Shown: positions 276 through 17,769 of the stretch, in pieces
Position numbering within the stretch: position 1 is the first letter of the stretch
How the letters are laid out: each line of letters starts with the position of its first letter
DNA from: Rhodobacteraceae bacterium UBA6273
GTDB taxonomy: Bacteria; Pseudomonadota; Alphaproteobacteria; Rhodobacterales; Rhodobacteraceae
DNA: 17,769 bases
Direction: 5' to 3'
Assembly: GCA_002440625.1 (NCBI GenBank)
Contig: DJUV01000087.1
Location: 1 to 17,769, forward strand
Notes under the pieces: generated by a model
Database searches by the model: none
The model's input: the letters and a program-made list of their open reading frames with translations, nothing else
Told to the model about the DNA's origin: nothing
Position numbers and translations under genes: made by a program

Positions 276-352
276 GCCGCCTTAGCTCAGCTGGTTAGAG
301 CACCAGATTGTGGATCTGGGGGTCTCCCGTTCGAACCGGGAAGGCGGTACCA
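276..352 (+). tRNA. tRNA-His (anticodon GTG)
   Basis: A full cloverleaf can be drawn. The acceptor stem is 276-282 with 342-348. The anticodon stem CCAGA/TCTGG encloses the loop TTGTGGA, giving anticodon GTG. The T arm is 325-329 with 337-341 around TTCGAAC. A73 is followed by an encoded CCA (350-352). The usual extra G at position -1 is absent (the base before is T), the first pair is G1:U72, and the discriminator is A73. This is the unusual tRNA-His form described for a clade of alphaproteobacteria. Integrative elements often insert at tRNA 3' ends, but I found no second copy of this 3' end in the window. Confidence 0.97.
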
Positions 353-3133: not shown

Positions 3134-3538
3134 GGCTAACCGCAGGCGGCGTTGCGACGCGGACGCCCAGACGAGCGGCAAGACCGCGGCCAACATCAAA
3201 AGAAGCGCGGCCACTCGGACGGTAGCTGCCGGAAATGGCAAGATGGTGCCAAGTGCGGCGGGATGGATTGCCAGGGCGCCGAGGCCCACGACCGTTGCCG
3301 CAATCCCGAACGAGACTGCCGCAAAAGCCGAGACCGTGGCGATGTTGTAGCCGTCAAGGCCAAGCCCCGAATAGACACGCCACCGCACCGCTCCGCCGGA
3401 CACCGCCGAAAGGCCGATCGTGTTTCCGAACGCATAGGCCATGAACCCGCCGGTCAGCACGACCGGGATCGGAAGCGGTTTGCCGATGTAGCGCAGCGCC
3501 GACCAGTCGTAGCCCGCAAGGGACAGATAGCCGCAAAG
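3134..3538 (-). pseudogene. mprF: mprF internal fragment (lysyl-phosphatidylglycerol synthase/flippase)
   Basis: About 134 residues in one minus-strand frame match the membrane domain of MprF in character: LAGYDWSALRYIGKPLP, then GNTIGLSAVSGGAVRWR and VYSGLGLDGYNIATVSAFAAVSF, with several hydrophobic helices. MprF adds lysine (or alanine) to phosphatidylglycerol and flips it, reducing killing by cationic peptides. A complete MprF has over 800 residues including a cytosolic synthase domain, so this piece lacks both its start and most of its length. On the upstream side (near 3535-3550) it is joined to the relaxase gene in another frame. On the downstream side (near 3134) it runs into the leader of the small membrane gene. 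It is non-functional as it stands. Confidence 0.8.
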
Positions 3539-4661
3539 CCGACGCCCAGGCCTTCGCTTTGAGCCCCGTCCAGACCCTCGCAAGGGCGCCGAGCGCCTTG
3601 GCCTTGCCGACCGGAGACTGGTTGGCGCGCCGCAACACTTGCCTGACCCGATCAGGGTCGGCGTCAGCGGCGGTCGTCAGCTTCGGCCTGTTGCCGTCGG
3701 CGATCTCGATCTGGCCGTCGACCACCGCCCCGACGAGGGCGAGAACGGCGTCGGCCTCGGCGCTCCGTTCGCCGGCATCCCGAATAGCCGCCTCGACGGC
3801 TGCTTCGCGCCGAATGACCTCTCTTTCGCGCGCCTCGACTGCGGTCGCGCGCACCTCAATCTCAGCCTCCCGCGCGGCGATCTTGCGCTCCTGATCCCGG
3901 CGCCACTGCTTCGGTCGGACATGGCGTGGGTTCGCAGGCGGAGCCTCGCCGCGCGCCAATGCCTCGCGGATCGCCCGCTTGCGCCGTTCGCCGCGCTTGA
4001 GGCCGAGGCTCGCGAAGGCTGCGCCGACACTGTCCTGGAGCTTCTCGTAGTCCTGGATCACTTCGAACTTCGACGGCTGCAGGAGTTTGCGCGGCGCGCC
4101 GTTCACCATGGTCTCGACGCGGGGCAGGATGACCGCATGGATGTGATATGCACTCTCGTCGCGGTCAGCGCGGGCGTGGACGACATCACCGCCGAACGTA
4201 TCCGTCAGCCACGTCACGGCCGTCTCCTCGAACTGCCGCTCGAGATCCGACGGGTCATCCCCGTTCGCGTCCGACGCCGCTGCGAACCAGTCCTGATGGG
4301 CGGTCAGGATGATCTCGCGCATCGGCCCATGCCGGCTGGGGCGGAACGGATCCTTCGGCCCTTCCGTGAACCGCTTGACGAGTTCCCGCTTGCGCTTGCG
4401 CCGCTTCAGCCCCTCGATCTCGCAAAGGAAGTTCTCCTCGCGCATCGCCGCAATCTCGGCTGCCGCCTTCGTAGCCCAATCGGCGTCGCCGATGAGCCGC
4501 CGGTTGAGGTGACTCCGGCGGCCATCGACATGGCCGAGATCGCCGCCCTTGCGGGCGCGGTGCGCCTCGTAGCCGCCGACATCTTCGGGGCGCATGCCCT
4601 CGGCGCGGGCGACGACGGGCCGCGCCTGTGGTGCTGCGGAAAGCGGGGTGTGGATCGACAT
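3354..4661 (-). pseudogene. mob: MobV/Mob_Pre-family relaxase, copy 1, C-terminus replaced
   Basis: A plasmid mobilisation relaxase that would nick an origin of transfer. Features shared with copy 2: GYEAHRARKGGD with His34, likely equivalent to the catalytic His of MobM of pMV158; GHVDGRRSHLNRRLIG; and the metal-binding motif ADRDESAYHIHAVILP (Asp168-Glu169, His173, His175). A coiled-coil region follows at about 255-300. The ATG at 4661 is chosen because GGAGGT lies just upstream (4667-4672); an in-frame ATG 13 codons earlier lacks this. Similarity to copy 2 stops near residue 370. The last 60 or so residues are read through the mprF fragment out of its frame, so the natural C-terminus is lost. 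The N-terminal nuclease domain is intact, so residual nicking activity is possible. Confidence 0.85.
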
Positions 4662-4662
4662 G

Positions 4663-4700
4663 TTGGACCTCCGGAACCGATGATCCGGAACTGGGTCCAA
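4663..4700. repeat. Inverted repeat over the start of mob copy 1
   Basis: TTGGACC plus TCCGGA (4663-4675) faces TCCGGA plus GGTCCAA (4684-4700). The repeat covers the ribosome-binding site of the relaxase gene, so it could be an operator or an RNA structure that masks translation. The same structure occurs at 17711-17746 in front of copy 2 with only small changes. Confidence 0.6.
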
Positions 4701-6735: not shown

Positions 6736-8365
6736 TTGTCCACCAACCTCCGCGCCGTGATCTATGCTCGGTTTTCGACAGATCTTCAGAACGAAAATTC
6801 GACCCGCGATCAGATCACCAATTGCTCCGCGTTTGCCGCAAGGAAGGGATGGCAGGTGCTGCAGGTCTTCGAAGACGCGGGGATGTCTGGCGCAAAGCGG
6901 GAGCGTCCCGGCTATAAGAGAATGCTGGGGGCTGTGCGAAGCGGTCTCGTGGATGTTGTGCTGGCCGAAGGGCTGGATCGCCTAAACCGGAGCCAGGAAC
7001 TTTCAGCGCATCTCTTCGCCCTCTGCGATTTCAATGGCGTGGAGCTTCATACCTTAGCTGATGGCCGCATCGAAGAGCTTCATATTGCGATGAAGGGCAC
7101 GATGGATGCGTTGCAACTGAAGCACACCTCGCGAATGACCCATCGTGGGCTCCAAGGCCGCGTTGAGGACGGCCGGTCTGCCGGAGGGCTGAGCTTTGGC
7201 TACCGCATTCCAGTGGACCCTGCGACTGGTCTACGGTGCAAGGGCAAACTTGAGATCCACGAAGAGCGAGCCGCGATCGTAAGGAGGATTTTTCGGGAGT
7301 TTGCCGACGGAAGTAGCCCCCGTGCTATCGCCCATCAGTTGAATGTGGAGGAAGTTCCGTCGCCTCGAGGCCGAAAATGGAAGGTCAATGCAATCTATGG
7401 TAACGCAAAGCGTGGGACTGGCATCCTGAACAACGAGCTCTACGCCAGTGTTCGGGTCTGGAACCGGCTCCAGTATCGCAAGAATCCCGAGTCAGACCGG
7501 CGCGCCTCGCGCAGCCGTAACGAAGACGAGGTCATGCGGGTCGACACGCCGCAACTCCGGATCATCGATGAGGATCTTTGGGCAGCAGTGAAAGCGCGTC
7601 AAAACGGACAGCGGCGCGCCCTCGCCCATTCGGCGCCTGTCGCGCTAAGACGAAGGAAATACCTGCTGTCAGGTCTTGTTCGCTGTGGGAGGTGCGAGGG
7701 GAACATGACGGTTGCCGGCTCCGGGAAATAGCCGGGCCTACTATTGCGCGAATGCGAAGGAGAAGGGCCCCTCCGTCTGTTCCGGCATGCCAGGGCTCCG
7801 GCTGGATTGGTTACAGCCGCTTGTGTTGTCCAGCCTACGCAATGAGTTGATGACGCCGGAAGCCGTCGAGCGTTTTCGCAACCAGTTCATTGCCCAAGTT
7901 GGCGAAACGAGGAAGGTCCGCGACAGTGAGCGAGCAGCAATTCGCCGCGCCTTGGCCAAAGAAGAGAAAGCCATTGAAGGAGCGCTGCGCGCGGTCCGCG
8001 ACGATGCGGCGACGAAGAGCATTTATGAGATGTTGAGTGCTGCCGAGAAGAAAAAGGAGGAACTTGAGGCCGACCTGGAGTCGCTCGACGCCCCCGCCTT
8101 TGTCATCCCGGAAGATCTGGCCGCACTCTACCGAACTCAAGTCGATGCCCTGGCCGAAATGCTTTCGGACCCAGAAGTGGTCCACCGCGCTTCCGAGATA
8201 CTCGGCGAGCTTATCAACAGAATTGTCATCCGCCACGATGAACCTGGCGGGCACACGGCTCAAATAGACGGCAAGCTTCTGGGATTGCTCAGCCTTACAG
8301 ACAAGCAAAAGGCCGCGTCATATAGGGACGCGGCCTCTTCGCTAAAGCTGGTTGCGGGGGCATGA
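6736..8365 (+). pseudogene. Large serine recombinase, frameshifted
   Basis: A site-specific recombinase that would integrate or excise a mobile element through a Ser-DNA link. The N-terminal resolvase domain (about 1-140) begins AVIYARFSTDLQNENSTRDQ with catalytic Ser14. A Recombinase domain follows (about 150-260: HRGLQGRVEDGRSAGGLSFGY), then a zinc ribbon starting LVRCGRC. The frame is broken at the TAG at 7729-7731 and resumes one base later with SRAYYCANAKEKG, completing the zinc ribbon, then a coiled coil (about 400-460) and C-terminus to 8365. Removing T7729 restores GSGKSRAYYC and a 542-residue protein of normal size. The start is TTG at 6736, with AACGGA upstream. Catalytic and DNA-binding parts are separated, so it is probably inactive unless the base is a sequencing error. 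Confidence 0.9.
8311..8335. terminator. Hairpin in the 3' end of the recombinase gene
   Basis: GGCCGCGTC (8311-8319) pairs with GACGCGGCC (8327-8335), a perfect 9-bp stem flanked by AAAA on the left and TCTT on the right. It looks like a bidirectional terminator lying inside the last 18 codons of the recombinase. Confidence 0.5.
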
Positions 8366-8567
8366 CACCACCGAAGTCTTCTTTTGAGCTTTGTTAACCG
8401 TCGACGGCTGTTTGCATGCCTTCAAGGTTGAGTTCTGGTGTTGACCTGCCACCGGTCTTTCCCAACTCGCGCGCGTGGTCTCTTCGCTCTGCAAGCAGCA
8501 GCTGCGATGACACGCTATGGAAAACGTTACCTGGAACAGCTATGTTTGCCGACAGAAGGGAAGCCCT

Positions 8568-8771
8568 ATGAACATCCACATCGCGCAATACCCGCAGTTG
8601 CGGGACCTGTGCTGGAACCGCCCCGCCGACACGGTGTTGGACGGCGAGGATGCTTTGGCGCTTTACGAACGCAACTGGCGCTTCATCGACGCCGATCGGC
8701 TGACGCAGGAAGAGCAGGCTCTTCTGGACTTGCTTGTTGCCCGCTATGGCAACGGCGTCCTGAATGTTTGA
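8568..8771 (+). CDS. Small gene upstream of AbiEii-type toxin, probable antitoxin
   Basis: A 67-residue protein, MNIHIAQYPQLRDLCWNRP to YGNGVLNV. The ATG at 8568 has GAAGGGA 7 bases upstream; an in-frame ATG at 8517 has no such site. It overlaps the toxin gene by 8 bases (ATGTTTGA), a layout typical of toxin-antitoxin pairs. It is far shorter than the classic AbiEi antitoxin, which carries a winged helix, and I see no DNA-binding motif. The residues QEEQALLDLLVARYGNG form an acidic helix that could bind the partner. The antitoxin role is inferred from position only. Confidence 0.7.
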   Translation: MNIHIAQYPQLRDLCWNRPADTVLDGEDALALYERNWRFIDADRLTQEEQALLDLLVARYGNGVLNV

Positions 8772-9456
8772 GCGGCCCCATCACAACGCCATAGCCAAGA
8801 TTCTCGCCTCGATTGATGGGGACCTGTTGGCGGGCGCGGAATGCTACTTCGGCGGCGGAACCGCCATCGTTCTGGCTTTGGGAGAGTATCGCGAAAGTGT
8901 CGACATTGACTTCCTGTGCGCGTCGCAGGTCGGCTACCGGCAATTACGACAGGCAACATTTGGCGGAACACTCCACAACCTGCTGAAACCCGGTGCCGAG
9001 ATCCGGGTGCTGCGTGATGTGCGCACCGATCAGTATGGTATCCGCACCCAGATTGGCGCGGGTGACGCGCGGGTGAAGTTCGAGATCGTCCGCGAGGCAC
9101 GGATTGCACTTTCCGGCGCACCCGATGCAGCACTTGGGGTGCCGGTGCTGGCGCGCGAGGACATGTATTGCGAAAAGCTGCTGGCGAACGCGGATCGCTA
9201 TGCGGATCGGTCGGTTCTGAACCGCGACATCATAGACCTGTCCATGATGATGTCACGTTGGGGACCGGTCCCGGATGCGGCATGGGCGAAGGCGCGGGCT
9301 GCCTATGGTAATACCGTCGAATCCGCCTTTGGGAAGGCCGTGTTTGCGATACGCGATCCGGCATGGCTGAAAGCCTGCATGGACGGCCTGGCCATGGACA
9401 GTCATCTTGCCGACGAAGTCCTGCATCAACATGGCGGAACGCGGGTTTCCGAGTAA
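8764..9456 (+). CDS. Nucleotidyltransferase AbiEii/AbiGii-type toxin
   Basis: A 230-residue protein of the AbiEii/AbiGii (DUF1814) nucleotidyltransferase family. It shows the nucleotide-binding motif GGGTA at 30-34, the metal-binding pair Asp47 and Asp49 (ESVDIDFL), a KFEIV strand near 99-103 and the family's later helix motif LAREDMYCEKLLANADRYADRSVLNRDIIDL. Known AbiEii-type toxins modify tRNA or nucleotides, stop growth and act in phage abortive infection. The gene overlaps its small upstream partner and starts at ATG 8764. It sits between a broken recombinase and a defence operon, consistent with a defence island. The target cannot be read from the sequence. Confidence 0.9.
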   Translation: MFERPHHNAIAKILASIDGDLLAGAECYFGGGTAIVLALGEYRESVDIDFLCASQVGYRQLRQATFGGTLHNLLKPGAEIRVLRDVRTDQYGIRTQIGAGDARVKFEIVREARIALSGAPDAALGVPVLAREDMYCEKLLANADRYADRSVLNRDIIDLSMMMSRWGPVPDAAWAKARAAYGNTVESAFGKAVFAIRDPAWLKACMDGLAMDSHLADEVLHQHGGTRVSE

Positions 9457-9717: not shown

Positions 9718-11184
9718 CTAGTTTTCGCCCGCCTCTTCGGGATCAATCTTCATGATGAGCGTCCTGGAACTCAACACAGGCTCGCCAAACGAATAGGACA
9801 CGTGCTGGCCATCCTCGATGAAATGTTGTGTGATGCCGGTGAAAGCGTTCTTCCGCAGCGGGTGCTTGGCATTTGGGTTGTGGAAAAGCTGCAACTCGTC
9901 CGCCCAACCTTCTGTGTAGCCTTCGGACGTTATCTCCTCCGAGAACGGGCGTCCGTGAGCCGCATTTGGATCAGGATCCAAGCGCAGACCCACCCGGAAG
10001 TACAAATGACCCGGGGCGTCGAAGCCAGCGGCAACACCCATCCGGTCGAACTTCGCGAGGGTCCCTGCGTTCGAAAACAGGACCGCCGAGACGTTTTCGG
10101 CACCAGGCAGGTCAAAGAAACCAGCAGGCACCACCTTGCCGTTGTAGGTGAAGCTTTCCACCGGCACAGCACGGACAACAAGTGTGCCGTCCAGGATTTC
10201 CCAGTCGACGCGGCTCCCGTAAAGGTATGGCCAGATCGCCGACTGCGTGTAGGGCATCGACCCACCCTCGCTGTCTCCAACACCGCCCGACTTGTGGAAG
10301 TCAGCGATGGCAAGGACGAATGGCTTTCCCGCCGTCGCGCCACGCTCCCAGTAGCTTTCACCGACCGCATTCTTCTTGTTGAGCTTGCTTGTGAGACTTG
10401 AGCCGAACTTCATGGGCATATAGTCGGCTAGGAAGGCACGCATCTCGTCGGGCGTCTTTGGGTCCGGGTGGTCGGCGAGGACACCGGAAGTGGATGCCGT
10501 GACCGTGGTTGCTTCGACCGTAAACTCAATCCCCGGCGCGCGGCATCGGAAATCAGGCGCTTCCGGCTGGGTGATGTCGAAGCCCATCTCCCGCAGCGCC
10601 GACCACAGGTATACCTCCCAGAGCCGCTGATCGAACTGCTGAAACTGGAACTCGCTGACGAAATGAGGGTCGCTCGGCGTCAGCCATGGGCCGATCTCCT
10701 TCAAGACAGCTCGGGCAGGTGCGCGGCTTGGATCATCAAGAAGCACTCGGAAATGCGGGTGAAGTTTATCGGGATTTGCACCGGTGGGTAGGTCAAGCAG
10801 GTTCGTCGCGTAGTTTGTCTCGTCGTCTTGATGGCCGAGGGCCTCAAAGTCGCCGTCCTCGACTGCCTTTGCGATGCGCCGCCTTAGACCAATAGTGGCG
10901 TACTCTCGAGAGCGTAGACTGACGGAAAGGTCGACGCTTCGGAAACGCCCGAGGCGGTCGCGGGCCAACAGAACCCAGCCATAGTCGTCATCCGTCGTGT
11001 CGCGGAAGATTAAACCCAGCACGCGTTCTTCTTGGTCGCTCCAGTAGGAGATTTCCTCAGACATGTAGCGAGTCGGCGACAATCTGGTGCCGATGGCGAA
11101 GACGTTGAACCGCGCCGGCGACAACAAACGGCTGAGCTTCCAGTGCTCTTCTCGCTGTCGCTGTTTATGTTTTCCTTGACCCAT
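9718..11184 (-). CDS. Large protein with possible PD-(D/E)xK nuclease centre, IetAS-linked
   Basis: A 488-residue protein I do not recognise as a named family. The middle part reads QFDQRLWEVYLWSALREMGFDI, then PEAPDFRCRAPGIEFTVEATTV. Helix Glu190, Asp211 (PDF) and Glu224 (VEATT) follow the order seen in PD-(D/E)xK restriction-type nucleases, although the expected lysine after the last acid is not obvious. Residues 1-120 and 300-480 have no motif I know. There is no signal peptide or membrane segment. The ATG at 11184 is chosen because GAGGACG precedes it; it begins 10 bases after the DUF3223 stop, so the two are surely cotranscribed. As the last gene of the ietAS operon it may be an effector, which is inference. 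Confidence 0.7.
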   Translation of the reverse strand: MGQGKHKQRQREEHWKLSRLLSPARFNVFAIGTRLSPTRYMSEEISYWSDQEERVLGLIFRDTTDDDYGWVLLARDRLGRFRSVDLSVSLRSREYATIGLRRRIAKAVEDGDFEALGHQDDETNYATNLLDLPTGANPDKLHPHFRVLLDDPSRAPARAVLKEIGPWLTPSDPHFVSEFQFQQFDQRLWEVYLWSALREMGFDITQPEAPDFRCRAPGIEFTVEATTVTASTSGVLADHPDPKTPDEMRAFLADYMPMKFGSSLTSKLNKKNAVGESYWERGATAGKPFVLAIADFHKSGGVGDSEGGSMPYTQSAIWPYLYGSRVDWEILDGTLVVRAVPVESFTYNGKVVPAGFFDLPGAENVSAVLFSNAGTLAKFDRMGVAAGFDAPGHLYFRVGLRLDPDPNAAHGRPFSEEITSEGYTEGWADELQLFHNPNAKHPLRKNAFTGITQHFIEDGQHVSYSFGEPVLSSRTLIMKIDPEEAGEN

Positions 11185-11194
11185 GGCATCGTCC

Positions 11195-11509
11195 TCATGC
11201 CGCAATGGCACTTAGCGCCTTATTCATCGAGAAGTTTCCTGTTGTGCCGTCTTCAAACGTCACACCGAAGCACCGTGTGGTGTAGCCAGGGCCGCGATCA
11301 TGGATGGGATAGAAGCATGCCGGAGGCGAGGCCAAGGACCAGTTGGTCTTTAAGCAGTAGTCGGCGTAGGCGGCGCGGATATCTACCAGATCTTCGCCGG
11401 AGAAGACCTCCTTAAGCTCTTGGCCTTTCAGAATTTTCGCGAAGTAATCCTTTGCGGCTTTTACGCTTGGAAACTCTCGTCCATTGCTGATGGCCACCGA
11501 TTTCGCCAT
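11195..11509 (-). CDS. DUF3223 (DCL-like) protein, IetAS-linked
   Basis: A 104-residue protein that reads like DUF3223, the domain found in plant DCL proteins and at the end of some plant RNA polymerase IV/V subunits. It has the N-terminal NGREFPSVKAAKDYFAKIL, a central ACFYPIHDRG, and the closing CFGVTFEDGTTGNFSMNKAL strand pattern. The domain is thought to act in nucleic-acid-related processes, but its bacterial role is unsettled. The ATG at 11509 is preceded by AGGAGA. The gene lies 51 bases after ietS and 10 bases before the nuclease-like gene, all on one strand, so it belongs to the same operon. Confidence 0.75.
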   Translation of the reverse strand: MAKSVAISNGREFPSVKAAKDYFAKILKGQELKEVFSGEDLVDIRAAYADYCLKTNWSLASPPACFYPIHDRGPGYTTRCFGVTFEDGTTGNFSMNKALSAIAA

Positions 11510-11560
11510 GACAGTCTCCTAAATGTCTCCATGATTGGGCAAGGCACCTTCTGCTGATCA

Positions 11561-14068
11561 CTACACCCTTGGCGTGATACGTGCAGCGGTCCGTATATCG
11601 GCGATCAGCGTACCAAGCGCTTGGAGGCTTTGACGCATATCGTTGAACACCGGCTGTTCGGCGTCGGGATCACTGATGGTCACGATCACCGTGAACGGCA
11701 CCCCTTCTTCGGGCATGATCTCGCCCGCCCTCGTCAGATATTCGACGAAGAGACGCCAGTTCGAGGAGGGGCCTACACCCTGCGGAAAGGTTTTCGCCAA
11801 GACCTTCACTGGGCTCCACTTGAGATCGTGCTCGATGCGTTCCGCCTCGATCGGAGGAGCTTCCCGTTGTGACGGGAGATAGAGCGGCTCAAGTCGGCCC
11901 TTCCACCCGCCGCTAGCCTGTTCTTGCTGCAAGACTGCGTTGATGTTGACGCGCACGAACTCCGATCCGAATCGGGCGTCGAGCGGGGGCGTGGAGACGA
12001 GCGTAATCTTTGCGCGACCGCGGCACTTGCCTCCGGGACCGACCAATGATGCCGGCCATTGGAAACGAAAGTTAATTTGTTGATCTCGCTGGATGCGCGA
12101 CGCGAAGACGAGAGTAATCGTGTGGTCGCCCGTTTCCAGGATGCGTTCGGCCGAAGGCGGCATTCCGAAGCCCACCATATACTTAGCGATCGGCGCAAGC
12201 GCCTCGACCTGCAGAGGGATCGGTATTCCGGCATGATGAACTAGCAGGCCGATCAGGGTTTCGCGCGAGACCTCACCCTCAATAGCGTGATCCAAGACAG
12301 CGGCGGTCTTCGCGGCGAGCGGCGCGGCATAGCTAGTTCCGCAGCCATCGACGATGGTGCCGTCGGGCAAGATCGAGAAAAGCCCGTGGCCGAGTTCAGG
12401 GTGGTGGGAACCCGCGCCTCCGATATGCGCTAGGTCTGGCTTGACGCCAGCGCGTAATCCGGGGCCACGTCGGCTGAAGCGCGTCGGCGCGAACGGTAGG
12501 CACCCGTCATGGCCCGGCGGATTCAAAGCAGCCACAGCGACATTGCGCGCGCTCTCGGCTGGCGTAAGAAGGCCATCGTTGCGGGCGGTGGCCAGGTTGG
12601 CAAGCGCGGCCGTGGCGTCGGCAGGCCATTCAGGGCGAAGGTCTTGCGGTTGTATGTTACCGGCTGAAATGAAAACGATCGCGTTGTTGCTCTCAGCGAT
12701 CTGATCGAGCCGCGCTGCGTGGGGGCTATAACGATCTGGCACCGCGGGCTGAAGAATATTCAGGCTCATGTTGAACACGCGCACCCCATGTCGAGCGCGG
12801 GCGTCCGAAATGGCTGTCTCCATTTCGTCGAAGAATTGCGGCAAGCCATCAGGATAATAAGACGCAAAAGCTCCGGCCCTGCGCTCGTTGGGGAAGACGG
12901 CGACGTCAACCAACTCTGCACCGTCGGGCTCGAGACAAATCTCGGCGCCGTTAAGTGCGCCGCCAAGGACGGCCAATCCCCCGATGAACGTGCCATGCGC
13001 AAGGTCGGTATCCTCATCCGCAAGAACGTCCCACCGATCAATGACCCAGTCGGACAGCGCTTCGCCGATTCCGCCGTCGATGATCCCGAGCCGGGGATGA
13101 CTGCGGCGGCTGTCGCGGACGGGAATAGTGACATCGGCAGGCCGTTCGCGCGCGACAGGCGTGCTGGTTCTTGCGGACCGCACAACGATGCCAGGTAGAT
13201 CGATCCGGCGCACAAGCGGATGGCTGTCGAGGAAAGTGAGCAGCCGAGAGTGGCGGCCGACGTCGGGATTGAATGCCGCCAGCTCGCGCCGACGTTCGCT
13301 GACGAGAGCGTCATTCAACCGCAGGACCGGCTGATCTCCAGACTGATCCAGTCGAATTGACAGGATCGGCTGCTTATGGCGACGGTTCGGCAAGCGCTCG
13401 ACTGCGAGGCCGCGATCCAGCGCCGCAAAGCCGGCAACGAAGCTCTCAACAAGGCGCCGATGGCTCGGGTCGAGGCGATCCCACTCCGAGCGCGGCGGCG
13501 GGCTGTCGAACAGTTCGACCTGATAGCTGCTGCCGGTCATTGGATTGGATAGCCACGCCACAGCTTCATCGACCGAAAAGCTGCGCCGATCGCTCGGCCC
13601 ATAGAGTTCGATCCGGTCGATGGCACCGGTCTCGCTCTTTCGCGCAGAAGGGTAAGGTTCATCCTTCTGCTTCTGCTCATTGAACCGCACTTCCGTATGG
13701 TTTTCAGCCTTAGAGATCTCCGCGGCCACCTGGCGCAGCGTGACGGGCCGGGCTTCGACGAGCATTACCCCGAGATCTCCGCCACCAACGACAGGAGTGC
13801 GATCATGCCGAAACAGACTGGAGATCGGGCGATGGCTCTTGGCCCAAGCTTCGCGACGAAGGACGACCTTAACGAAGCCGATATCGCTCTGTGCCTGCGC
13901 GCTGAGAACGCCAGCAATCGTGTCGATCTGGCCCATCAGCGCGGCGCGATGGGCGGCGAACGCGGCATCGCGGTGAGCAAAGAAGTCCTTGCGGCCGCCT
14001 CCGCCACCGACGTCGCGCGCTTCCTCATAGTTTTCGGGATTGAGGACGATCTGGATGGGGCTAGCCAT
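11561..14068 (-). CDS. ietS: Subtilisin-like serine protease IetS
   Basis: An 835-residue cytoplasmic protein with a subtilase (S8) domain at about 325-595. The catalytic triad is visible: Asp331 (GIIDGG), His358 (LAHGTFIGG) and Ser579 (GTSYAAPL), with the oxyanion Asn471 (ISAGN). There is no signal peptide. About 320 N-terminal residues and 240 C-terminal, beta-rich residues flank the protease. An AAA+ ATPase gene overlaps the start (ATGGCTAG), the arrangement of IetA/IetS. That pair was first described as a stability toxin (IetS) and antitoxin (IetA) on the Agrobacterium Ti plasmid pTiC58 and later shown to protect against phages. The protease is presumed to be held in check by the ATPase until infection. 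The size and pairing make the call strong. Confidence 0.9.
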   Translation of the reverse strand: MASPIQIVLNPENYEEARDVGGGGGRKDFFAHRDAAFAAHRAALMGQIDTIAGVLSAQAQSDIGFVKVVLRREAWAKSHRPISSLFRHDRTPVVGGGDLGVMLVEARPVTLRQVAAEISKAENHTEVRFNEQKQKDEPYPSARKSETGAIDRIELYGPSDRRSFSVDEAVAWLSNPMTGSSYQVELFDSPPPRSEWDRLDPSHRRLVESFVAGFAALDRGLAVERLPNRRHKQPILSIRLDQSGDQPVLRLNDALVSERRRELAAFNPDVGRHSRLLTFLDSHPLVRRIDLPGIVVRSARTSTPVARERPADVTIPVRDSRRSHPRLGIIDGGIGEALSDWVIDRWDVLADEDTDLAHGTFIGGLAVLGGALNGAEICLEPDGAELVDVAVFPNERRAGAFASYYPDGLPQFFDEMETAISDARARHGVRVFNMSLNILQPAVPDRYSPHAARLDQIAESNNAIVFISAGNIQPQDLRPEWPADATAALANLATARNDGLLTPAESARNVAVAALNPPGHDGCLPFAPTRFSRRGPGLRAGVKPDLAHIGGAGSHHPELGHGLFSILPDGTIVDGCGTSYAAPLAAKTAAVLDHAIEGEVSRETLIGLLVHHAGIPIPLQVEALAPIAKYMVGFGMPPSAERILETGDHTITLVFASRIQRDQQINFRFQWPASLVGPGGKCRGRAKITLVSTPPLDARFGSEFVRVNINAVLQQEQASGGWKGRLEPLYLPSQREAPPIEAERIEHDLKWSPVKVLAKTFPQGVGPSSNWRLFVEYLTRAGEIMPEEGVPFTVIVTISDPDAEQPVFNDMRQSLQALGTLIADIRTAARITPRV

Positions 14069-15266
14069 TTAGTGTCTCCCCATCGCCAGACTTGGCCGCT
14101 CGACCGAGCTGACGGCTGACCGTCGATTTATCTTTGCCGGCAATCTCGCCGATGTCGGCCATTGAGAAGGCGAGGATCGGATCATCCCGCATAGCCCGAA
14201 ACAGATTGCTGGAATCGTCAAACAGCAGGGCACGGCGTTCACTTTGGACCCGAGCCGCGTTAAGCGTGGCGAATTGGCGGAGCGTATCGAGTAGACCGCG
14301 CCTATCCTCCTCGCGAACGGTGGTGGCCTTCTTGTAGGTGCGCACGAGAGACTCGATCTCGGCGCCGGTCGAGCCTTCGGTGAACCATGCGATCAGGCGC
14401 AAATGGATATCCGGGGCCTTTACGGGCGGCATGAAGTGTGCGGCGATCGCCTTCCGCATTTCGAAATCCGGCTTGGGGATCTCAAGCTGAACCTCGAAAC
14501 GCCGCCAGACGGCCGTGTCCAAGAGCTTCGGGTGATTGGTGATGCCGATCGTGAAGCCGACATCGCGGCGCGTATCGAGGTTCTGCAGAAGCGCGTTCAC
14601 GACGCGCTTGATCTCGCCAACTTCCTGAGGATCATCCCGAACTTTCGCGATCGCGTCGAACTCGTCAAGCAGAAGGATGCAGCGGTGACGGTTCGCGAAA
14701 GCGAACAGGTTTCCGATATTGCGCGCGGTCGTGCCGAGGAACGACGATACGAGCCCGTCCAGCTTCACCAGCACAACGGGGAGATCGAGTTGTTGCGCAG
14801 TCCAAAGCGCCAACCTGGTCTTTCCCGTCCCCGGAGCGCCATAAACAAGACAGGTTTTGGAAGGGCGAATGTCGATTTCCGACAGCGCGTCGAAGTTGGC
14901 CCATTCCTCGATAATGGTATCGATGGCGTGACTGACGGTCGTGTTGAAGAGCGGCGCAGTCGGTTGAATGTCCGCGGGGAAGAGAATCTCGGCCAAAGGT
15001 GCGGCTGTCTCTCGGTCGACCGGAACAGGCGTGTTCCGTGTCAGCAACTCACCGAAGAACTGCGCTTTGGAGCGCTCGATCCGGCTCGGCGACAGCTCTT
15101 TGGTTCGATCCGCAATCGTGAGAATGCTGGTCAGAGCCGCAGCTTGCTTCGCGTCACCGTCCTTGGCCAGCGCGTCTCGGAGGCGCTCGATCTGTTTGCG
15201 CGAGGCCGGCGAAGGATCGGCCATCGCCGCGCGACAAAGGGCTTGGATGATTGGGAAGTGTTCCAT
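14061..15266 (-). CDS. ietA: AAA+ ATPase IetA
   Basis: A 401-residue AAA+ ATPase. The Walker A motif GAPGTGKT is at 143-150, Walker B ILLLDEFDAI has Asp201 and Glu202, the sensor 1 Asn244 is in GITNHP, and an arginine-finger-like WRRFE lies at 254-258. About 130 N-terminal residues are helical. The C-terminal SMADIGEIAGKDKSTVSRQLGRAAKSG (about 368-394) looks like a helix-turn-helix, so the protein may also bind DNA. In the IetAS system this partner is the antitoxin or regulator of the protease. The ATG at 15266 has AGGAT upstream. It is the first gene of a four-gene operon whose promoter overlaps a palindrome. Confidence 0.9.
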   Translation of the reverse strand: MEHFPIIQALCRAAMADPSPASRKQIERLRDALAKDGDAKQAAALTSILTIADRTKELSPSRIERSKAQFFGELLTRNTPVPVDRETAAPLAEILFPADIQPTAPLFNTTVSHAIDTIIEEWANFDALSEIDIRPSKTCLVYGAPGTGKTRLALWTAQQLDLPVVLVKLDGLVSSFLGTTARNIGNLFAFANRHRCILLLDEFDAIAKVRDDPQEVGEIKRVVNALLQNLDTRRDVGFTIGITNHPKLLDTAVWRRFEVQLEIPKPDFEMRKAIAAHFMPPVKAPDIHLRLIAWFTEGSTGAEIESLVRTYKKATTVREEDRRGLLDTLRQFATLNAARVQSERRALLFDDSSNLFRAMRDDPILAFSMADIGEIAGKDKSTVSRQLGRAAKSGDGETLNG

Positions 15267-16406: not shown

Positions 16407-17708
16407 TCACGACCGCTCATCGGCCCCTTTCTCTCGCGCGCGTCGGCGCATCCGGGCGCCGCCGCCGGCGAGCAGAGTGGCGATCTTCTGGTGCGGATCG
16501 GCCAGAGTGGCGTGGAGCGCTGCCGGCAGTGCGGACAGGATGCCGGACAGGTGCTTCGCCGCCTCCTGCACCTCCGCGAACTCCCGCGCGAGCGTCGCTT
16601 CCGCCGCTGCCTCGGCCTGCGGCTTCACGCGCAACCAGGCACGGTGCAGAGCCCGCAGGATATTGTCGCGCCCGGACGGGAAGCGATCTGCCTGGCTTCG
16701 CATCTCGGCGAGCTTCGTCCGGTTTGCCTCCGGCGTCGGCGAGAGAAATCTCTTGGGGTCTCCATCCGAGATCTCGAGCTGGCCCTCCGCAAGAGCGTCG
16801 ACAATGCCGAGGATGGCCGCCGCCTCGCCACTGCGCGCCTCGGCTTCCTTGATCGCCCGTTCCGCCATCGCCTCGCGCCGCCTGACTGCCACTTCACCAA
16901 GCGTCAATCGGTCCTCCCGCGCGGCAAGCTTGCGCTCCTGATCCTGGCGCCATTTCTTCGGGCGCACGTGGCGCGGGCTCTCCGGCGGCGTCTCACCCCG
17001 TGACAGCGCCTCGCGGACGGCCTGCTTGCGCCGTTCGCCGCGCACCAGACCGACACTCGCGAAGGCTGCGCCCACACTGTCCTGCAACATCTCGTAGTCT
17101 CGGATCACCGCGAACTTCGACGGCTGCAGGAGCCTGCGCGGCGCGCCGTTCACCACCTTATCAACGCGCGGCAGGATCACCGCGTGGACATGATAGGCGC
17201 TCTCGTCGCGGTCGGCGCGGGCATGAATGACATCATCGCCGAACGTATCCATCAGCCATTTCACGGCCGTCTCCTCAAACTGCCGCTCGAGATCCGACAG
17301 GTCTTCACGGTCCGCGCCTGATGCCGCTGCGAACCAGTCCTGATGGGCGGTCAGGATGATCTCGCGCATCGGGCCGTGCCGGCTCGGGCGAAACGGATCC
17401 TTTGGCCCTTCCGCGAAGCGCTTGACGAGTTCGCGCTTCCGCTTGCGCCGCTTCAGCCCCTCGATCTCGTGCAGGAAGTTCTCCTCCCGCATCGCCGCGA
17501 TCTCGGCTGCCGCCTTCTTAGCCCAGTCGGCCTCGCCGATAAGCAGGCGGTTGAGGTGGCTCCGGCGGCCATCGACATGACCGGTATCGCCCCCCTTGCG
17601 GGCGCGGTGCGCCTCATAGCCGGCGAGGTTCTCGGGACGCATGCCCTCCGCGCGGGCGACGATGGGCCGCGCCTGTGGCGCTGCGGAAAGCGTGGTGTGG
17701 ATCGACAT
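16407..17708 (-). CDS. mob: MobV/Mob_Pre-family relaxase, copy 2, full length
   Basis: A 433-residue relaxase that would nick the origin of transfer and lead a strand into a recipient using a conjugation machine supplied by another element. It has GYEAHRARKGGD with His34 as likely catalytic residue, GHVDGRRSHLNRLLIG, the metal-binding motif RADRDESAYHVHAVILP (Asp168-Glu169, His173, His175), then a coiled coil and a helical C-terminal part ending in REKGADERS. In the usual HxDExxPHxH motif of this family the first His is an Asp here. The ATG at 17708 follows GGAGGT (17714-17719). It is the intact counterpart of the truncated copy at 3354-4661, in the same orientation. Confidence 0.88.
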   Translation of the reverse strand: MSIHTTLSAAPQARPIVARAEGMRPENLAGYEAHRARKGGDTGHVDGRRSHLNRLLIGEADWAKKAAAEIAAMREENFLHEIEGLKRRKRKRELVKRFAEGPKDPFRPSRHGPMREIILTAHQDWFAAASGADREDLSDLERQFEETAVKWLMDTFGDDVIHARADRDESAYHVHAVILPRVDKVVNGAPRRLLQPSKFAVIRDYEMLQDSVGAAFASVGLVRGERRKQAVREALSRGETPPESPRHVRPKKWRQDQERKLAAREDRLTLGEVAVRRREAMAERAIKEAEARSGEAAAILGIVDALAEGQLEISDGDPKRFLSPTPEANRTKLAEMRSQADRFPSGRDNILRALHRAWLRVKPQAEAAAEATLAREFAEVQEAAKHLSGILSALPAALHATLADPHQKIATLLAGGGARMRRRAREKGADERS

Positions 17709-17710
17709 GC

Positions 17711-17746
17711 TGGACCTCCGGAACAGATGATCCGGAACTGGGTCCA
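17711..17746. repeat. Inverted repeat over the start of mob copy 2
   Basis: TGGACC plus TCCGGA (17711-17722) faces TCCGGA plus GGTCCA (17731-17746). The 60 or so bases to the window edge match the sequence upstream of mob copy 1 (4662-4720) with very few changes. A second copy of the candidate origin of transfer is therefore expected just beyond the window. Confidence 0.6.
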
Positions 17747-17769
17747 ACGCCCCCGGCCGAGAAACGCGC

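What the first reader, a model, noticed from the sequence alone, without database searches (positions are those of the whole stretch)
9718..15266. IetAS defence pair extended by DUF3223 and a possible nuclease
The AAA+ ATPase and subtilisin-like protease match the IetA/IetS pair, known as a plasmid toxin-antitoxin module and an antiphage system. Two more genes follow on the same strand with gaps of 51 and 10 bases: a DUF3223 protein and a 488-residue protein with a possible PD-(D/E)xK centre. Such spacing suggests one operon and one function. I know IetAS as a two-gene system, so a four-gene form with a putative nuclease effector, perhaps released by IetS cleavage, may be undescribed.
Basis: partly seen in the sequence, partly recalled or inferred. 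Interest (0 to 1): 0.85.

Follow-up and report, generated by a model that had tools for sequence, protein, structure and literature searches.

The report
IetAS with DUF3223, beside PD-T7-1
A stretch of bacterial DNA holds two known kinds of defence against viruses packed head to tail; the unusual part is a small third gene attached to one of them, of a type so far described with a different defence system.

Summary
The four genes are there, tightly spaced on one strand. The first two are a canonical IetA/IetS pair.

PD-T7-1 mostly occurs apart from IetAS. Of 43 loci found by homology, none has IetAS or DUF3223 beside it; one has an IetS about 6 kb away. On two plasmids PD-T7-1 does lie next to another IetAS, in other orders and orientations, as in a defence island.

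DUF3223 is different. It directly follows IetS in five loci from two divergent IetAS clades (two are broken by insertion sequences), and it lies behind HamAB in Hachiman type II, where it is called HamC. It is a minority third gene of IetAS (1 of 15 class-sample loci; 4 of 57 plasmid records) that my paper searches did not find described.

A four-gene protease-triggered nuclease system is not supported by comparison, but not excluded here, where co-transcription is likely.

The parts
14061..15266 (-). ietA: AAA+ ATPase, 401 aa, with a weak C-terminal helix-turn-helix match
   Evidence: PADLOC IetA 5.4e-155; Pfam AAA 1.1e-26, HTH_38 0.034 at residues 368-389; Walker A 143-150
11561..14068 (-). 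ietS: subtilisin-like serine protease, 835 aa
   Evidence: PADLOC IetS 2.6e-293; Pfam Peptidase_S8 1.5e-18; D331, H358, S579
11195..11509 (-). DUF3223 (HamC-like) gene, 104 aa; third gene of the IetAS variant
9718..11184 (-). PD-T7-1 gene, 488 aa, predicted PD-(D/E)xK-like nuclease; judged a separate module
   Evidence: PADLOC PD-T7-1 2.3e-142; E190, D211, E224, K267 invariant in 130 rows; mostly apart from IetAS elsewhere

Best explanation
This is a piece of a defence island made of neighbouring modules. Module one is IetAS in a three-gene form: AAA+ ATPase IetA, subtilisin-like protease IetS, and a DUF3223 protein of the kind called HamC in Hachiman type II. Module two is a PD-T7-1 gene lying directly behind it and probably read from the same transcript. 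Most likely mechanism: IetA holds IetS in check; on infection, ATP-driven remodelling frees IetS to cleave cell or phage proteins and stop growth; DUF3223 is an accessory that tunes sensing or release; PD-T7-1 independently cuts DNA with a PD-(D/E)xK-like centre (E190, D211, E224, with K267 as the likely stand-in for the missing motif lysine). Shown here: gene content, spacing, family matches, invariance of these residues, recurrence of IetA-IetS-DUF3223, and that PD-T7-1 mostly occurs elsewhere without IetAS. Inferred: co-transcription and everything biochemical.
For: Family matches. PD-T7-1 without adjacent IetAS or DUF3223 in 43 of 43 loci found by homology (5 class, 32 genome contigs, 6 viral), including three at 85-88% identity (L019, L043, L138); in the window's genus G618 has an 87% PD-T7-1 without IetAS on its 9.7-kb contig. 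IetA-IetS-DUF3223 in Rhizobium jaguaris, Agrobacterium tumefaciens pAtG3_79a, Komagataeibacter and Aureimonas, with IetS of the A. tumefaciens type only about 22% identical to the window's yet matching PADLOC IetA/IetS. DUF3223 behind HamAB in 5 of the 6 class-sample DUF3223 loci, the sixth being the window. Catalytic residues. IetS toxin and IetA antitoxin in homologues: PMC5006074, one passage.
Against: PD-T7-1 lies next to a different IetAS on two plasmids (Xanthomonas pXCV183, Microvirga) and about 6 kb from part of an IetS in L033, more than random placement would give. Only 60 of 84 PD-T7-1 plasmid records were listed and only 3 read. DUF3223 is absent from most IetAS loci, so its role in IetAS is not essential. 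No structure match supports the nuclease fold firmly.
Confidence: 0.74

Rival explanations
1. One four-gene system: IetS, controlled by IetA and DUF3223, cleaves PD-T7-1 or an inhibitor of it and so switches on a nuclease, as proteases do for pro-nucleases in Hachiman HamMAB, AVAST and canu.
For: Gaps of 51 and 10 bases on one strand. Protease-activated nucleases are known in defence (PMC12799240, abstract and passages). PD-T7-1 next to IetAS on two other plasmids. Aureimonas has a Swt1 HEPN gene behind IetA-IetS-DUF3223, a possible second effector form.
Against: PD-T7-1 stands without adjacent IetAS in 43 of 43 loci found by homology. The other four IetAS-DUF3223 loci have no PD-T7-1. Order and orientation differ on the two plasmids, and their IetAS belong to other clades and have no DUF3223 hit. 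PD-T7-1 defends in E. coli as a cloned locus (passage).
Confidence: 0.12
2. DUF3223 is a co-partner of PD-T7-1, not of IetAS: the last two genes are one module that landed behind IetAS.
For: The two genes are only 10 bases apart.
Against: No DUF3223 next to PD-T7-1 in 43 loci. DUF3223 follows IetS without PD-T7-1 in four loci and lies behind HamAB in five class-sample loci.
Confidence: 0.05
3. DUF3223 beside IetAS is only island hitchhiking, with no role in IetAS.
For: Most IetAS loci lack it, and it is interrupted or truncated by insertion sequences in 2 of 5 IetAS-DUF3223 loci.
Against: DUF3223 is rare (6 of 385 class genomes), yet it sits in the same place and strand behind IetS in two IetAS clades, with gaps of 12, 32 and 51 bases in the intact loci.
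Confidence: 0.09

Closest known systems
IetAS (IteAS), toxin-antitoxin and antiphage pair
   Same: AAA+ ATPase then subtilase, overlapping genes, strong PADLOC matches to both
   Different: A DUF3223 gene follows; most IetAS loci examined lack it
PD-T7-1 antiphage protein (Vassallo et al. 2022)
   Same: Whole-length match, 473 bits; invariant E190, D211, E224, K267
   Different: Belongs to an alphaproteobacterium-rich clade; all 120 listed relatives are 60-94% identical, while five other class-sample members are 32-38% identical
HamC of Hachiman type II (DUF3223)
   Same: Same small family, model like 2k0m, last gene of a defence operon; one Hachiman copy is 52% identical to the window's
   Different: Here behind IetAS, not HamAB
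Nuclease-protease pairs (Tuck et al. 2025)
   Same: A protease gene and a predicted nuclease gene side by side in a defence locus
   Different: There a trypsin-like or caspase protease and an MBL-fold nuclease that co-occur; here a subtilase and a PD-(D/E)xK-like protein that mostly occur apart

Membership tests
IetAS | IetA-type AAA+ ATPase followed directly by an IetS-type subtilase | tested here: met
   514 and 973 bits, 8-base overlap
IetAS | Walker motifs in IetA and D/H/S triad in IetS | tested here: met
IetAS | IetS toxic, IetA antitoxic; protects from phage | not testable with these tools
   Reported for homologues only (one passage)
PD-T7-1 | Full-length match to the family model | tested here: met
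   residues 30-488 of the 497-aa reading on positions 4-448 of 452
PD-T7-1 | Protects against phage without partner genes | not testable with these tools
   In print for the E. coli locus (passages); that it is a single gene is recalled, as the passage on single-protein DNase systems does not name it
PD-(D/E)xK nuclease | Conserved acidic residues D and E with a nearby E and K | tested here: met
   D211, E224, E190, K267 invariant in 130 rows; the motif lysine position is T, S or V
PD-(D/E)xK nuclease | PD-(D/E)xK fold | tested here: inconclusive
Hachiman type II | HamA and HamB beside the DUF3223 gene | tested here: not met
   the genes beside it are IetS and PD-T7-1
HamC / DUF3223 | Sequence family and fold | tested here: met
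Nuclease-protease pair (Tuck et al. 2025) | Nuclease and protease genes co-occur across loci | tested here: not met
   43 of 43 PD-T7-1 loci without adjacent IetAS, against two plasmids with it

The most novel reading that the evidence does not exclude
DUF3223 is a portable control part shared by unrelated defence systems (Hachiman and IetAS) that couples an ATPase-driven sensor to an effector gene placed behind it. In this window it would couple the IetAS protease to a PD-T7-1 nuclease, giving a four-gene protease-licensed nuclease system, with Aureimonas IetAS-DUF3223-HEPN as a second effector form.
Probability: 0.12. Interest if true: 0.8.

Novelty: new variant of a known kind. Interest (0 to 1): 0.42.

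Why it matters
The nuclease resolves to a described antiphage protein, which removes the main surprise. What is left is useful: a small protein of unknown function, described as HamC of Hachiman type II, is also the third gene of some IetAS systems. Two unrelated defence systems sharing one accessory gives a direct way to find out what it does: if it changes the activity of both HamAB and IetAS, it must act on something they have in common.

Tried and rejected
Four-gene system as a rule: not borne out by the PD-T7-1 survey. My first scans used a narrow IetA/IetS panel; a wider one showed part of an IetS about 6 kb from PD-T7-1 in L033, and the plasmid searches showed two real neighbours, so 'never together' would be wrong. 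Four short IetA matches (40-47 aa, 30.8-33.9 bits) in L017, L022, L047 and L050 were set aside: three match only the last 44 residues or fewer of IetA, where L022 and L047 have resolvase-like genes, and the L017 one is 47 aa and 9 kb away.

PD-T7-1 as an unknown nuclease: rejected. Pfam and NCBIfam have no model matching it. A paper mentions a low-scoring RmuC-like prediction for PD-T7-1 and PD-T7-5 (PMC10270631, one passage); I did not test it.

DUF3223 tied to PD-T7-1: no support beyond the window. The shared contig length of P0001 and P0122 (2554 bases) is weak because P0110 shares it too.

The 78-aa gene before SduA in A. vitis and the 83-aa gene behind IetS in Xanthomonas gave no DUF3223 match.

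Full report
What is in the window. The four genes lie at 15266-9718 on the minus strand as reported. IetA and IetS overlap by 8 bases, DUF3223 starts 51 bases after ietS, and the 488-residue gene starts 10 bases after DUF3223. PADLOC models name them: IetA 5.4e-155, IetS 2.6e-293, HamC/DUF3223 1.2e-9, and PD-T7-1 2.3e-142 for the last one, with PD-T7-5 second at 134.5 bits. Pfam and NCBIfam have nothing for the last protein. IetS carries D331, H358 and S579, and IetA carries Walker motifs. The window is the whole of contig C196 in a 354-contig genome. An AbiEi/AbiEii pair (8517-9456, plus strand) converges on PD-T7-1, and a recombinase and MobV-like genes lie near: this looks like a defence island on mobile DNA.

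What the last protein is. PD-T7-1 was found by functional selection in E. coli (PMC9519451, passages) and is listed among PD(D/E)XK systems in a review table (PMC10952713, one passage). The protein search gave 592 hits, of which the best 120 are listed, all 60-94% identical; five other class-sample members are 32-38% identical. Position 226, where the motif lysine would be, is T in 120 and S in 1 of the close rows and V or T in the distant ones, so Lys267 is the likely substitute (inference). AlphaFold2 gives mean pLDDT 82.9; fold searches give no clear match.

Does it travel with IetAS? For PD-T7-1 they do. In tblastn scans of flanks, 32 of 32 loci from genome contigs, 5 of 5 strong class-sample loci besides the window and 6 of 6 viral contigs have no IetAS or DUF3223 next to PD-T7-1. 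Six weaker class matches were scanned only with 1.5-kb flanks and a narrow panel, also without a hit. Three of the 43 are 85-88% identical to the window's protein over the best segment (L019, L043, L138). Flanks vary: the loci with least room show 420 (L017) and about 550 (L142) bases upstream, enough for a DUF3223 gene at the window's spacing but not for IetAS. One locus (L033, Hyphomicrobium) shows part of an IetS about 6 kb away at a contig end, 55% identical to the Microvirga IetS. In the window's genus, 2 of 21 genomes have PD-T7-1: the window's and G618, at 87% identity and with a stop inside the match, on a 9.7-kb contig without IetAS or DUF3223; that contig has the same length as L019's and is probably the same one.

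Results against that reading. On plasmids 84 records match PD-T7-1 (60 listed). I read the surroundings of three. Xanthomonas pXCV183 has PD-T7-1 385 bases upstream of an IetAS, with an opposite ORF annotated between. Microvirga has it divergent from another IetAS, about 400 bases away. PADLOC confirms IetA, IetS and PD-T7-1 in both. The third, Klebsiella, has none. These were not random picks: Xanthomonas was read because its records also appeared in an IetS search, Microvirga because it was the best hit. So PD-T7-1 is near IetAS more often than random placement would give, but without fixed order, orientation or clade; I had no control with other defence genes. Families that recur around PD-T7-1 in 36 loci are, judged by eye from their sequences, recombinases and integrases, prophage genes, and in four loci two large proteins that I take for a type I restriction system.

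How common it is in IetAS. It is a minority form. Of class-sample IetAS loci with visible downstream sequence, 1 of 15 (the window) has it, counting G211, where only the IetS tail is in view. Nine of the 24 genomes matched were left out: eight with no IetA found near the match and G137, cut off inside ietS. A profile scan of 20 IetAS loci (14 class, 6 plasmid) found none. The order sample gave 4 further loci, none with it. On plasmids 4 of 57 records with an IetS match have it (25, 41, 9 shared; some may be other subtilases, and the Microvirga IetS is in neither list). In viral contigs 0 of 62 IetA loci have DUF3223 or PD-T7-1; 43 of them show an IetS-like ORF and 37 have more than 1.3 kb behind it, with near-duplicates among them.

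The slot behind IetS. Other IetAS loci are followed by other defence genes: a 78-aa gene and SduA in A. vitis, the same arrangement in R. leguminosarum, AbiJ in Bradyrhizobium, an OLD-like/UvrD pair in G120, and DUF3223 with a Swt1 HEPN gene in Aureimonas. This is what a defence island gives; it could also hint at exchangeable effectors, which is the novel case.

Mechanism. IetS is called the toxin and IetA the antitoxin of the Agrobacterium pTiC58 pair (PMC5006074, one passage). The most likely picture is IetA-gated proteolysis by IetS, tuned by DUF3223, plus an independent DNA-cutting PD-T7-1. Protease-triggered nucleases exist in defence (PMC12799240, abstract and passages), so the four-gene idea is reasonable; but those pairs co-occur and this one mostly does not. 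In a Tetrahymena La protein the DUF3223 region supports tRNA-mediated suppression and is proposed to act in RNA chaperoning (PMC9705548, passages), a lead towards nucleic-acid binding and no more.

In print? Searches for DUF3223 (6 papers), HamC with Hachiman, IetA with IetS, pairs among IetAS, HamC, DUF3223 and synonyms and PD-T7-1 with IetAS listed no paper that joins IetAS with DUF3223 or with PD-T7-1. Only open-licence PubMed Central texts are held, and listings were not all read.

Noticed in passing
window 8517-9456 (+): An AbiEi/AbiEii-type pair (PADLOC 2.5e-29 and 9.9e-84) converges on the PD-T7-1 gene: a further defence module in the same island.
   Followed up: no
window 6736-8365 (+): A large serine recombinase lies in two overlapping ORFs; its zinc-ribbon domain is split between them, so it is either a broken gene or a sequence error.
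   Followed up: no
window 3354-4700 and 16407-17747 (-): Two related MobV-like relaxase genes flank the island; a 300-base direct repeat inside them is 83% identical at 13 kb spacing.
   Followed up: no
window 276-352 (+): A tRNA-His gene near the contig start; tRNA genes are common island integration sites (recalled).
   Followed up: no
window 14061-15266 (-), residues 368-389 of IetA: A weak helix-turn-helix match at the IetA C-terminus; the last residues of Xanthomonas IetA also match the ends of resolvase-like genes in three loci. IetA may bind DNA.
   Followed up: partly
L075 and L145: In 2 of the 5 IetAS-DUF3223 loci the DUF3223 gene is interrupted or cut short beside insertion-sequence genes while IetA and IetS stay open.
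   Followed up: partly
L077 3827-5223, L078 10550-11946: IetA-IetS is followed by a 78-aa gene without family match and a Shedu SduA gene in R. leguminosarum and A. vitis: another possible four-gene arrangement.
   Followed up: partly
L144 7992-13024, L148 2205-7467: PD-T7-1 beside IetAS of other clades on Xanthomonas and Microvirga plasmids, upstream in one and divergent in the other.
   Followed up: partly
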